64,000 nt of DNA from assembly GCF_000759475.1 (NCBI RefSeq), contig NZ_CP009454.1, positions 1,984,001-2,048,000 on the forward strand, in the 5' to 3' direction. This document shows, piece after piece, positions 12,374 to 36,207 of this stretch. The notes beneath the pieces were generated by a model. The model saw only the letters and a list, made by a program, of their open reading frames with translations, ran no database searches and was not told the origin of the DNA. This stretch comes from Pantoea rwandensis (lineage in GTDB: Bacteria > Pseudomonadota > Gammaproteobacteria > Enterobacterales > Enterobacteriaceae). A program made the position numbers and the translations under genes. Numbering within the stretch: position 1 is the first letter of the stretch; the number at the start of each line of letters is the position of its first letter.

Positions 12374-12577
12374 GGCCTTAGCCCCTCTGCTGCTGCCGGG
12401 CAGTCCTCGCGCCGCTGACGCGGTGCCTTCGGCTTCCACGTCGTGCCGACGGACCGTTCGGGTAAGGCCGTCCTGGCCAACCTGAATTGCCAGTCGCATC
12501 CCTGCGACTGGCTCCTGGCCCAACGTAAAAGCCTCAGCGCTGCGGATAGCCCTTGCAGCAGCAGAGGGGCTATGGCC
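12374..12577 (-). repeat. Palindromic dispersed element, copy 1 (inverted)
   Basis: A 204-base unit with 23-base terminal inverted repeats (12374-12396 and 12555-12577) that differ at one position. Read on the minus strand it carries the shared segments CCGCAGCGCTGA, CCAGGAGCC, a 10-base-pair hairpin with loop GGGA (12489-12512) and AAGGCACCGCGTCAG followed by GGCGCGAGGAC. The same segments occur in the same order in the copies at 12928-13119 and 35009-35201. The terminal repeat sequence is unlike theirs, yet each copy is complementary to itself. No open reading frame of its own is credible. Confidence 0.75.
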
Positions 12578-12755
12578 TCAAACGTTGTGCCCATTTCTCA
12601 CAACAATGTGGCTTCTGCGGATAGCTCTTGCAGCAGCAAAAGGGCTATGGCCTCATGCGTTGTGCCTGTTTTCTAACAACAATGCGGCTTCTGCGGATAG
12701 CCCTTGCAGCAGCAGAGGGGCTATGGCCTCAAACGTTGTGCCCGTTTTCCAAACA
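12541..12755. repeat. Tandem array of about 76-bp units (3 copies)
   Basis: Units begin with TGCGGATAGC at 12541, 12616 and 12692 (periods 75 and 76). The third is complete for about 60 bases and then diverges. Each unit can form ATAGCCC/GGGCTAT and, in the first two, GTTGTG/CACAAC-type stems. The first unit contains the right terminal repeat of palindromic copy 1, so the array looks like amplification of that element's end. Confidence 0.85.
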
Positions 12756-12927
12756 GATGCTCGGTTAACACATTGGGTTTTTGCAGTGGCAAAGAGAGAT
12801 GGGAATAGCTATGTGTCTGCCTTTAGATCAAATGCATGGCATCCGAGCAACGCCCTTGCAGCCGAGCGGTTAAGGCTTGAAGTTGCCTGCCCTTATTTAA
12901 CAGCAGGCAACAAAGTTCAGGAGCAGG
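12756..12927. other. Unassigned spacer between repeat elements
   Basis: I see no gene here. It contains one 9-base-pair perfect hairpin (GTTGCCTGC at 12882-12890 with GCAGGCAAC at 12903-12911) just before palindromic copy 2. Reading frames through it are products of repeat composition. Confidence 0.5.
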
Positions 12928-13119
12928 CTGGTGCCGCTTTGGGGGCAGGCATTTCGCAGCGCTGAACAGAGTGAGGATGCCAGGATAGCCCGCAGGGATG
13001 CGGGCGGAAGGCGGGGCGGCACATGGATGTGCCATCCCCGCCGTTCCGTAAGGCAGACGAACGGCGTGAAGGCACCGCGTTAGCGGCGCGAGGACCGCCA
13101 GCCCCCAAAGCGGCACCAG
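12928..13119 (+). repeat. Palindromic dispersed element, copy 2
   Basis: A 192-base unit bounded by a perfect 19-base inverted repeat, CTGGTGCCGCTTTGGGGGC at 12928-12946 and its complement at 13101-13119. Inside are hairpin I (GCCCGCA/TGCGGGC, loop GGGA, 12988-13005), hairpin II (GGCGGGG/CCCCGCC enclosing GGCACA/TGTGCC, loop TGGA, 13010-13042) and hairpin III (CCGC/GCGG, 13075-13086). Copy 3 has all three hairpins at matching positions with different stem bases; the shared loops are GGGA or TGGA. Confidence 0.8.
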
Positions 13120-13276
13120 ACAGCGTCACCGTGGCAGCCCAAAGCGGCACCAGACAGCGTCACCCTCGCAGCCCAAAGCGCCACCAGACAGCGTCACCCT
13201 CGCAGCCCAAAGCGCCACCAGACAGCGTCACCCTCGCAGCCCTAAGCGCCACCAGACAGCGTCACCCTCGCAGCCC
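13107..13276. repeat. 34-bp tandem array (5 units) at the right end of copy 2
   Basis: Five 34-base units start at 13107, 13141, 13175, 13209 and 13243, each ending in CAGCCC and differing at one to three positions; a partial sixth follows. The first unit overlaps the right terminal repeat of copy 2. There are no spacers between the units. The array ends 30 bases from the sanA stop codon. Confidence 0.9.
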
Positions 13277-13306
13277 AAAGCGTTACAATAATAGCTTCTG
13301 GCAGCA

Positions 13307-25047: not shown

Positions 25048-25067
25048 GGCATGTTCACCATGCCATG

Positions 25068-25144
25068 ACTCGGGGTGCCCCTGTTAAACAGGGCTGAGAT
25101 ACACCCGCTGACCTGATCTGGATAATGCCAGCGTAGGGAAGTCA
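25068..25144 (+). ncRNA. TPP riboswitch (THI element)
   Basis: The THI-box landmarks are present in order: ACTCGGGGTGCCC, then GGGCTGAGATACACCC, then ACCTGATCTGGATAATGCC and GCGTAGGGA. Thiamin pyrophosphate binding would reduce expression of the downstream salvage genes thiM and thiD. A separate hairpin GGCATG/CATGCC (25048-25064) precedes it. No clear intrinsic terminator lies between it and thiM, so control at the ribosome-binding site (GTTGGGAG) is more likely. Confidence 0.95.
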
Positions 25145-25189
25145 GATGCCTGACCGCATTCGCCTTCTTGATCGCCGGTTGGGAGTTTT

Positions 25190-33443: not shown

Positions 33444-33519
33444 TGGCTCCTCTGACTGGACTCGAACCAGTGACATACGGATTAACAGTCCGCCGTTCTA
33501 CCGACTGAACTACAGAGGA
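33444..33519 (-). tRNA. tRNA-Asn (anticodon GTT)
   Basis: A 76-base tRNA with encoded CCA. The minus-strand sequence begins TCCTCTGTAGTTCAG and ends AGTCAGAGGAGCCA; acceptor, D, anticodon and T arms (GGTTCGAGTCC) all pair. The anticodon GTT lies at 33484-33486. The sequence appears the same as E. coli tRNA-Asn. tRNA-Asn genes are frequent island integration sites, but no integrase or att duplication is seen here. Confidence 0.97.
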
Positions 33520-35008: not shown

Positions 35009-35201
35009 CTGGGGGCCGTTCTGGGGCAGGCACTTCGCAGCGCTGAACGGAATGAGGAAGCCAGGAGAGCCAGCATGGATGCTGGCGAAAGGCGCAGCCG
35101 GAACAGGGATGTTCCGTCTGCGCCGGTCCGTCAGGCTGACGAGTGAAGTGAAGGTACCGCGTCAGCGGCGCGAGGACCGCCAAGCCCAGAACGGCCCCCA
35201 G
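35009..35201 (+). repeat. Palindromic dispersed element, copy 3
   Basis: A 193-base unit bounded by a perfect 17-base inverted repeat, CTGGGGGCCGTTCTGGG at 35009-35025 and its complement at 35185-35201. It shares with copy 2 the segments CTTCGCAGCGCTGAAC, GTGAAGG and GGCGCGAGGACCGCC. Hairpin I is GCCAGCA/TGCTGGC (loop TGGA, 35069-35086). Hairpin II is GGCGCAG/CTGCGCC enclosing CGGAACA/TGTTCCG (loop GGGA, 35091-35124). The outer repeat bases differ from copies 1 and 2. To its right, CCAGAC-GCGTCA-like pieces recur twice before yegS. The remainder of 34950-35307 holds no gene. Confidence 0.8.
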
Positions 35202-35307
35202 ACGGCGACACCACGGGCCCCCTAAAATCCATCACCACCAGCTCTCCAGACTGCGTCATCCCCGGCAACCAACCCGCTCTTATCACCTGCCTCTCAACTG
35301 ACAAACA

Positions 35308-36207
35308 TCACGCCAGCAGTGGGCACTGCGGCGGCAGACGGCAGCTCAGCGCGCCGGGCATCACTTCAATTTCAAATTCACTACCGGTCAGCGGCTCGCC
35401 ATCCAGATTAAACGTCATCTCATGCGGGGAGCGAATGCGTAGCGATTGCAACTGCGCCGAGACAATATTCGGGTTCTCATCATTGCGCGTCAGCGAATGC
35501 AGTAGCGTTGGCAACAGCTCCTGCGCGGTCACAATGCTCAGATTCAGCTGCCCATCATTGATCAACGCATCCGGACACAACTTCTGCCCGCCACCCGCCT
35601 GACGACCATTACCAATGCCGATCACCAATGCATCGCCTTGCCACGCAAAGCCCGGTCCGCTGATCTCACAACTATCCGGCTTCAGCGCATCCACCCGCAT
35701 CAAACCGTGAATAAAGTACGACACGCCGCCCAAAGCCGATTTCAATTTCTCCGGCGTCTCCGTGGTGATACGCGTGCCAAAGCCACCGGTCGCCATATTG
35801 ATAAAATAGCGATCGCCATTCACGCGCGCCAAATCAATCGCGCTGGCTTTGCCCAACACCGCCAGACGCAGTGCCGGTTCCATCTCCGCTGGAATACCGA
35901 CGCTGGTGGCGAAATCATTGGCCGTGCCAAGCGGCAGAATACCCAGCGCCGGACGTTGCTCTTCAGCCACCGCCGCCAGCGCTGTGGCAATCTCATTGAT
36001 GGTGCCATCGCCGCCACCGGCGACCACGGTTTCAGCCTGCAACGCCACCGCTTCCTGCACGTAACGGTCGCCGTCGCCCTTTTCCCAGGTCACGCGCACC
36101 GCCAGATTAAAGCCTTCCTCACGCAGCGTATTAACCGCCGCACGCAAATCTTCATTGCCCGCGCCTTTTCCATTGAGGATCAGCAGCGTCAGTGGTTTGT
36201 TTTGCAT
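35308..36207 (-). CDS. yegS: Lipid kinase YegS
   Basis: YegS is a cytoplasmic diacylglycerol-kinase-fold lipid kinase; the E. coli protein phosphorylates phosphatidylglycerol in vitro. The 299-residue length equals E. coli. The nucleotide loop GGGDGTINE and the following PLGTANDFA motif are intact, as is the C-terminal LDGEPL motif. The ATG at 36207 follows AAGGA by 7 bases; the upstream open frame runs through the trhP terminator. Same strand as trhP. Confidence 0.95.

What the first reader, a model, noticed from the sequence alone, without database searches (positions are those of the whole stretch)
12374..13119. Family of palindromic elements with covarying stems and conserved loops
Three units (12374-12577 inverted, 12928-13119, and 35009-35201 some 22 kb away) share the segments CGCAGCGCTGA, CCAGGA, CCGCGTYAGCGG and GGCGCGAGGAC in the same order. 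Between them lie hairpins whose stems differ from copy to copy but remain perfectly paired: hairpin I is GCCAGTCGCA/TGCGACTGGC, GCCCGCA/TGCGGGC or GCCAGCA/TGCTGGC, with loop GGGA or TGGA. The 17-23 base ends also differ between copies yet are self-complementary within each. Covariation of this kind implies selection on a folded nucleic acid, or a copying mechanism that rewrites both arms together. I do not recognise the family.
Basis: seen in the sequence. Interest (0 to 1): 0.85.

Follow-up and report, generated by a model that had tools for sequence, protein, structure and literature searches.

The report
Transposon-borne paired RNA hairpin elements
These repeats look like decayed copies of a small jumping element that lands in the stop signals at the ends of genes and carries folded RNA modules whose loops resemble binding sites for the bacterial regulator CsrA, so it may spread decoys for that regulator around the genome.

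Summary
All three copies are present, and the genome has 14 strong copies. They are modules of a dispersed repeat of Pantoea-type genomes. The core resembles Rfam TwoAYGGAY (RF01731; B and C pass the gathering score, A is not listed), already proposed in print to bind CsrA (PMC4333381, passages). Stems covary (94.3% of cells paired over 136 distinct copies). G-U cells outnumber A-C cells 240 to 5 outside three apical positions, which points to RNA. GGA lies in loop I in 135 and loop II in 132 of 136 copies.

They lie in units with IS4-type 18-bp inverted ends (both ends in 34, one in 29, none in 31 of 94 loci). Of 31 two-ended units, 19 have target duplications (shuffled mean 0.96), mostly in terminator-like sites. 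An IS4-family transposase gene with the same end has 8 copies in this genome. So this is an IS4-type MITE carrying probable CsrA-binding RNA modules. Mobility is well supported; expression and CsrA binding are inferred. Of the window copies only C keeps a recognisable end.

The parts
12374..12577 (-). Module A (type 2): terminal arms plus core 12403-12544; left half of a divergent pair
   Evidence: pattern match; R1 match G000:C1:1996403-1996544, E 1.5e-21, used to build the model; fold
12489..12512 (-). Hairpin I of A, loop GGGA
   Evidence: sequence, fold
12461..12482 (-). Hairpin II of A, GGA in the loop
   Evidence: sequence, fold
12928..13119 (+). Module B (type 1): terminal arms plus core 12955-13095; right half of the divergent pair with A
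   Evidence: pattern; R1 E 3.4e-26, used to build the model; fold
12981..13062 (+). Rfam RF01731 TwoAYGGAY match in B (43.6 bits, gathering 43)
12988..13005 (+). Hairpin I of B, loop GGGA
13010..13042 (+). Hairpin II of B, ATGGAT at the tip
35009..35201 (+). Module C (type 1): terminal arms plus core 35036-35177
   Evidence: pattern; R1 E 1.5e-25, used to build the model; fold
35062..35139 (+). Rfam RF01731 TwoAYGGAY match in C (56 bits, gathering 43)
35069..35086 (+). Hairpin I of C, loop TGGA
35091..35124 (+). Hairpin II of C, AGGGAT at the tip
35293..35310 (-). Probable remnant of the IS4-type 18-bp end (CTCAACTGACAAACATCA, 3 mismatches), right of C
   Evidence: the only match with up to 4 mismatches in the 64-kb window; background 2 in 649 kb

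Best explanation
Copies A, B and C are RNA modules of a non-autonomous IS4-type transposable element (a MITE). A two-module unit with both ends is about 520-820 bp. It has 18-bp inverted ends shared with an IS4-family insertion sequence, two modules pointing away from each other (usually one of type 1 and one of type 2), and no transposase. I infer that an IS4-type transposase inserts units into the hairpins of intrinsic terminators, mostly between convergent genes, duplicating ~9-14 bp. Read-through transcripts of the flanking genes would then contain a module. Each module folds into a long stem with two adjacent hairpins that expose GGA in the loop, where I infer that CsrA binds. A unit would thus act as a CsrA-binding 3' tail or decoy, and its spread would add CsrA sites. 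Shown by sequence comparison: modules, divergent pairing, RNA-type covariation, ends, target duplications, terminator-like sites, and an IS4 element with the same end in this genome. Inferred: movement by that enzyme, transcription, CsrA binding, any effect on regulation. In the window A and B have no recognisable ends and C keeps one.
For: Module: 94.3% paired cells, covariation score 0.398 vs shuffled 0.138; changes on both sides also within each type (12 and 18 pair positions); G-U 240 vs A-C 5; GGA in loops in 135 and 132 of 136. Unit: 73 of 73 pairs divergent, 66 of 73 type 1 + type 2; 52 of 71 between convergent genes vs 89 of 538 background neighbours. Ends: both 34, one 29, none 31 of 94 loci, background 2 in 649 kb; the end lies 42 nt from the type-1 core in 33 of 41 cases; exact-end pattern in 24 of 60 genomes, reversed control in 0. 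Target duplications: 19 of 31 units (shuffled mean 0.96, max 6), 11 of 11 IS copies. Sites: hairpin plus A/T tract in 19 of 31 units and 9 of 11 IS copies vs 12 of 293 random sites. Driver: 8 copies in this genome with the same end, Pfam Nterm_IS4 and DDE_Tnp_1. Of 20 two-ended elements found by the end alone, 10 hold modules. Compact module-free sites at the A/B locus in 15 of 30 loci. IS4-type ends also flank RF01731 modules in three other genera. One csrA gene.
Against: 31 of 94 loci show no IS4-type end. In this genome 12 of 16 module loci show none at up to 5 mismatches, A and B among them. A near-full-length driver homologue is found in only 3 of 60 genus genomes, one of them split, although 24 of 60 carry perfect ends. 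No sigma-70-like promoter in two units, so expression is unproven. CsrA binding is untested. In other genera few RF01731 repeats that I read show such ends (3 of 28 loci L250-L277; 2 of 40 stretches L278-L317). Two of five covariation measures do not exceed shuffles. Hairpin energy alone does not set the sites clearly apart (26 of 31 vs 178 of 293 random sites).
Confidence: 0.6

Rival explanations
1. The modules serve as replacement 3' ends: by inserting into terminators the unit must restore termination or shield mRNA ends, and the stems are kept for that; GGA loops are incidental.
For: Insertion at terminator-like sites between convergent genes. Hairpins with A/T tracts are visible beyond the type-2 arm in many printed flanks; the scan found one such site in one of two units, which is no more than its shuffles give (mean 1.0).
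Against: The module itself ends without a U-tract. Termination does not explain why GGA is kept in both loops while stems change. No terminator-like site in the other scanned unit.
Confidence: 0.2
2. The palindromes are DNA features (cruciforms or protein sites, REP/BIME-like), with arms kept identical by template switching between quasi-palindrome arms.
For: Long, nearly perfect palindromes; in some insertions the loop of the flanking hairpin looks inverted on one side (L077, L125).
Against: Strand asymmetry: G-U 240 vs A-C 5, which template switching would not give. GGA is on the same strand of the module in 135 and 132 of 136 copies.
Confidence: 0.07
3. The folded RNA or DNA is a cis-acting part of transposition (for example control of transposase or end pairing), not a regulator decoy.
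For: The type-1 module lies at a fixed 42 nt from the end in 33 of 41 cases.
Against: Of 20 two-ended IS4-type elements found by the end alone, 10 hold no module (one of them the IS of G006). None of the 8 IS copies of this genome overlaps a module match.
Confidence: 0.08
4. Dispersed small RNA genes of the CsrB/RsmZ type, multiplied by ordinary duplication and transcribed from their own promoters.
For: Several GGA hairpins; divergent pairs would suit a central promoter.
Against: No promoter-like site in two units; ends and target duplications speak for transposition.
Confidence: 0.05

Closest known systems
TwoAYGGAY RNA (Rfam RF01731; Weinberg et al. 2010, PMC2864571, a table row seen; CsrA binding proposed in PMC4333381, passages seen)
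   Same: Two adjacent hairpins with AYGGAY-type loops; B and C pass the gathering score; 5 of 14 matches in this genome pass
   Different: The outer stem of the model is not matched in B and C (positions 43-128 of 168). Divergent pairing, IS4-type ends and terminator targeting are not mentioned in the passages I saw
IS4 subgroup insertion sequences (De Palmenaer et al. 2008, PMC2266710, passages seen)
   Same: Ends of the form -AATR, target duplications of 10-13 bp, size 1400-1650 bp (1421 bp for L206), insertion specificity in the target arms of some members
   Different: The units encode no transposase and carry RNA modules
YPAL / RU-2 of Yersinia (Delihas 2007, PMC2759123 and PMC2229807, passages seen)
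   Same: Mobile intergenic palindrome whose targets span or adjoin dyad symmetry; by my reading it also has two GGA-loop hairpins
   Different: Its relatives match Rfam Ysr224 in 12 of 12 loci, 7 over the gathering score, and none match RF01731 at E up to 0.1. Its 4 matches listed for this genome lie elsewhere
CsrB/CsrC/RsmZ sponge RNAs (recalled; named in a PMC4333381 passage)
   Same: Several GGA hairpins on one RNA
   Different: Two loop sites per module, many dispersed copies, no promoter found in two units scanned

Membership tests
TwoAYGGAY (RF01731) | Score at or above the Rfam gathering score | tested here: met
   B 43.6 and C 56 vs 43; A is not listed
TwoAYGGAY (RF01731) | Match over the full model including the outer stem | tested here: not met
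   B and C match positions 43-128 and 43-123 of 168; full-length matches occur in several relatives
IS4-type MITE | Inverted ends shared with an autonomous IS4 element | tested here: met
   Family level: both ends 34, one 29, none 31 of 94; same end on the IS4 copies. In the window only C's right end
IS4-type MITE | Target-site duplication of the driver's length | tested here: met
   19 of 31 units, 11 of 11 IS copies; not seen for A, B, C
IS4-type MITE | Moved in trans by the IS4 transposase | not testable with these tools
   inferred from shared ends and targets
CsrA-binding RNA | GGA in hairpin loops, two sites close together | tested here: met
   135 and 132 of 136 copies; 28-30 nt between the GGAs in 131 of 136
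CsrA-binding RNA | Transcribed and bound by CsrA | not testable with these tools
   no expression or binding data
YPAL/RU-2 | Sequence similarity to RU-2 | tested here: not met
   The 4 RU-2 matches listed for this genome are not at module positions; only 3 candidates per genome were scored
REP/BIME with RAYT transposase | GTAG/CGTC-tagged REPs and a RAYT gene | not tested
   not searched

The most novel reading that the evidence does not exclude
An IS4-type transposon family has turned CsrA-binding RNA into cargo. By landing in terminators it hangs paired CsrA-binding hairpins on the 3' ends of many transcripts, so copy number sets a genome-wide, evolving CsrA buffer. TwoAYGGAY-type modules more widely (26 of 154 sampled genera of the family), with IS4-type ends already seen in three further genera, would be cargo of dispersed mobile repeats.
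Probability: 0.4. Interest if true: 0.82.

Novelty: new variant of a known kind. Interest (0 to 1): 0.62.

Why it matters
It joins three things that the passages I read treat apart: an RNA family of unknown function (TwoAYGGAY), IS4-type elements with hairpin targets, and CsrA. If CsrA binds, a selfish element would be spreading binding sites for a global regulator in up to dozens of copies per genome (53 modules in one genome, where the count reached the scoring cap). That makes it directly testable whether mobile repeats buffer or rewire post-transcriptional control. It also suggests how a transposon can tolerate landing in gene ends.

Tried and rejected
Own promoter in the spacer: no sigma-70-like site in two units. 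YPAL identity: rejected. Terminal arms as duplicated target hairpins: rejected, because the arms lie inside the IS4-type ends. Template switching as the source of covariation: disfavoured. Other genera: I fetched 40 stretches from 10 genomes and aligned six families. I first took two of these families (G363, G371) to end in other sequences; a later check found IS4-type ends in 2 of the 4 G363 stretches, so that reading is withdrawn and the boundaries stay unresolved. Literature: (search listings) and passages of PMC2864571, PMC4333381, PMC2759123, PMC2229807, PMC2267715, PMC9208149, PMC10969869, PMC2266710; no whole paper was read. Dropped rows: one search used the 31 two-ended loci of the 78 assessed (the three further two-ended loci were not tested) and 11 of 13 PF13006 loci (L209 and L212 left out for poor or missing ends). 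One search used 150 of the 160 matches (136 distinct) and none of the 33. Gene context used 71 of 120 loci (39 lacked a gene on one side, 10 were too far), with genes called by a simple greedy ORF rule. One search read 30 of 60 matched genomes, with modules found by a pattern of up to 2 mismatches per anchor. Caps in the genome search make copy counts lower bounds. The E. coli IS4 end (TAATGCCGATCAGTTAAGG) was recalled and only a lead; the test was the IS copies of this genome.

Full report
1. Observation. The three units are real and at the stated places. A pattern of two outer conserved segments finds exactly these three in 64 kb, with none in 100 shuffles. Folding gives for each a long terminal stem and, inside it, two adjacent hairpins. 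A covariance model from nine copies finds 14 strong matches in the 4.33-Mb genome (E at most 1.7e-18) and two weak ones; nine of the 14 built the model and five are new.

2. Known RNA family. Rfam matches B (43.6 bits) and C (56 bits) to TwoAYGGAY, gathering score 43; A is not listed. The same family has 14 matches in this genome at E up to 10, 5 over the cut-off; among 14 control genomes it rang in one, below the cut-off. TwoAYGGAY came from a bioinformatic screen (PMC2864571, a table row seen) and was proposed as CsrA-binding from motif matches (PMC4333381, passages).

3. Distribution. In the genus, 53 of 60 sampled genomes match at E up to 0.01, with up to 53 copies (the number scored per genome was 53). 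In the order, 27 of 295 genomes match, in 7 of 99 genera (10 scored per genome). RF01731 itself matches 38 of 246 genomes of the family, in 26 of 154 genera, 20 genomes over the cut-off, often with several copies. In 18 relatives tested by Rfam, 14 match RF01731 at E up to 0.05 and 12 pass the gathering score.

4. RNA evidence. On 136 distinct copies 94.3% of 4993 cells pair, against 78.3% in shuffles and at most 42.1% in slid controls; the covariation score is 0.398 against 0.138. Two of the five measures (pairs with a change on both sides; further pair types) do not exceed the shuffles (203 and 82 of 500 reach them). Relatedness inflates the others, because two module types dominate. Within type 1 and type 2 taken apart, 12 and 18 positions still show changes on both sides. 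G-U or U-G cells number 242 and A-C or C-A cells 64; leaving out three apical positions where the loop varies, 240 against 5. On the other strand the G-U cells would be mismatches, so pairing is kept on this strand, as RNA. GGA lies in loop I in 135 of 136 and in loop II in 132 of 136, 28-30 nt apart in 131 of 136. AGGA before hairpin I is kept in 119 and CGAGGAC at the 3' end in 130 of 136. Terminal arms pair better on average with their own partner than with arms of other copies.

5. Unit. Among 120 named loci with 193 modules, 73 hold a pair and all 73 are divergent; 66 join type 1 and type 2, 5 are type 2 twice and 2 have one unassigned module. Of 71 loci with genes within 600 nt on both sides, 52 are convergent, against 89 of 538 neighbouring pairs in the same loci. 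Beyond the arms lies TAATGCTTGTCAGTTAAG, inverted at the two sides (up to 4 mismatches): both ends in 34, one in 29, none in 31 of 94 loci with enough flank. The same search gave 2 background hits in 649 kb. The end lies 42 nt from the type-1 core in 33 of 41 cases. Two-ended units with two modules are 519-823 bp (28 units), with one module 334-448 bp (6 units).

6. Insertion. Of 31 two-ended units, 19 have direct flank repeats (at least 85% identical, best length 9-14 bp); partner shuffling gives 0.96 on average and at most 6. Twelve of 31 have flanks that are inverted repeats (shuffled mean 0.77, max 3), as expected inside a hairpin. The joined flanks give a hairpin and an A or T tract of four or more in 19 of 31 units and 9 of 11 IS copies, against 12 of 293 random sites; the tract carries most of this contrast, because hairpin energy alone is common in this DNA (26 of 31 against 178 of 293). 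Clear examples are L076, L073 and L089. At the A/B locus (permease to DUF218), 30 orthologous loci were read of 60 matched genomes: a pair in 5, this genome included, one module in 1, no module in 23, and 1 without the permease. Fifteen of the 23 have only 47-100 nt between the genes, with terminator-like palindromes visible in the printed sequence. One of the 23 (L321) keeps what looks like a remnant of a module end.

7. Driver. The IS4 N-terminal domain is found in 5 of 60 genomes; this genome has 8 copies. Each is bounded by the exact unit end on one side and TAATGCCGATCAGTTAAG on the other. The 11 IS copies examined, from this genome and three others, all have target duplications of 10-14 bp. 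The protein has Nterm_IS4 and DDE_Tnp_1. Ends, duplication length and size fit the IS4 subgroup (PMC2266710, passages). Of 30 loci found by the end alone, 20 have a partner end; 10 of these hold module cores and 10 do not, among them the IS of G006 and seven elements of 118-149 bp. Against: near-full-length homologues occur in 3 of 60 genomes, one split, and fragments in 8 more, while 24 of 60 have perfect ends, so most genomes with perfect ends lack the driver in the sampled assembly.

8. Other genera. IS4-type ends flank RF01731 modules on both sides in L257 and L258 (one genus, 633 bp) and in L311 (another genus, 449 bp), and on one side in L272 (a third) and L313. The other RF01731 loci read there show none (3 of 28 loci L250-L277 and 2 of 40 stretches L278-L317 have an end), so IS4 is one vehicle and other vehicles are likely.

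9. Window copies. A and B have no recognisable end or target duplication. C has one end with 3 mismatches at 35293-35310, the only such match in the window. They are best read as old, decayed units.

10. Mechanism. Supported by comparison: an IS4-type non-autonomous element that targets terminator-like hairpins and carries RNA modules kept for pairing and GGA loops. Inferred: read-through transcription (no promoter-like site found in two units), CsrA binding (one csrA gene is present), and titration or 3'-end control.

11. Relation to known systems. By the Rfam test two of three window copies are RF01731; at family level the unit is an IS4-type MITE. It is not YPAL/RU-2: RU-2 relatives match Ysr224 in 12 of 12 loci (7 over the gathering score), none RF01731. 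I found no report of the combination (listings), in an open-licence library only.

Noticed in passing
window 12529-12760: About three tandem copies of the 5' arm of the type-2 module lie between A and B.
   Followed up: partly
window 13095-13290: About five tandem copies of the 3' arm of the type-1 module (CACCAGACAGCGTCACC...) follow B; similar arm repeats follow type-1 modules in other Pantoea loci (e.g. L114, L116, L157).
   Followed up: partly
G000:C1:2673787, 3517259, 3517518, 398855 (L369 for the first): Relatives of the Yersinia YPAL/RU-2 repeat occur in this genome and in 12 of 154 sampled genera of the family; Rfam names the strand opposite to the GGA hairpins Ysr224. By my reading RU-2 also has two GGA-loop hairpins.
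   Followed up: partly
L278-L317: In other genera RF01731 modules are in multi-copy repeats; several end in a 3' hairpin whose stem changes from copy to copy yet stays paired by eye (e.g. L310-L313, L289-L294).
   Followed up: partly
L257, L258 (1104-1736), L311 (482-930), L272, L313: IS4-type ends flank RF01731 modules outside the window's genus.
   Followed up: partly
L224, L225, L229, L230, L239, L245, L247: Short (118-149 bp) IS4-ended elements without RNA modules; some carry other palindromes.
   Followed up: no
L077, L125 flanks: In some insertions the loop of the flanking terminator hairpin looks inverted on one side.
   Followed up: no
window 25061-25156: TPP riboswitch.
   Followed up: no
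window 33447-33519: tRNA gene on the minus strand.
   Followed up: no
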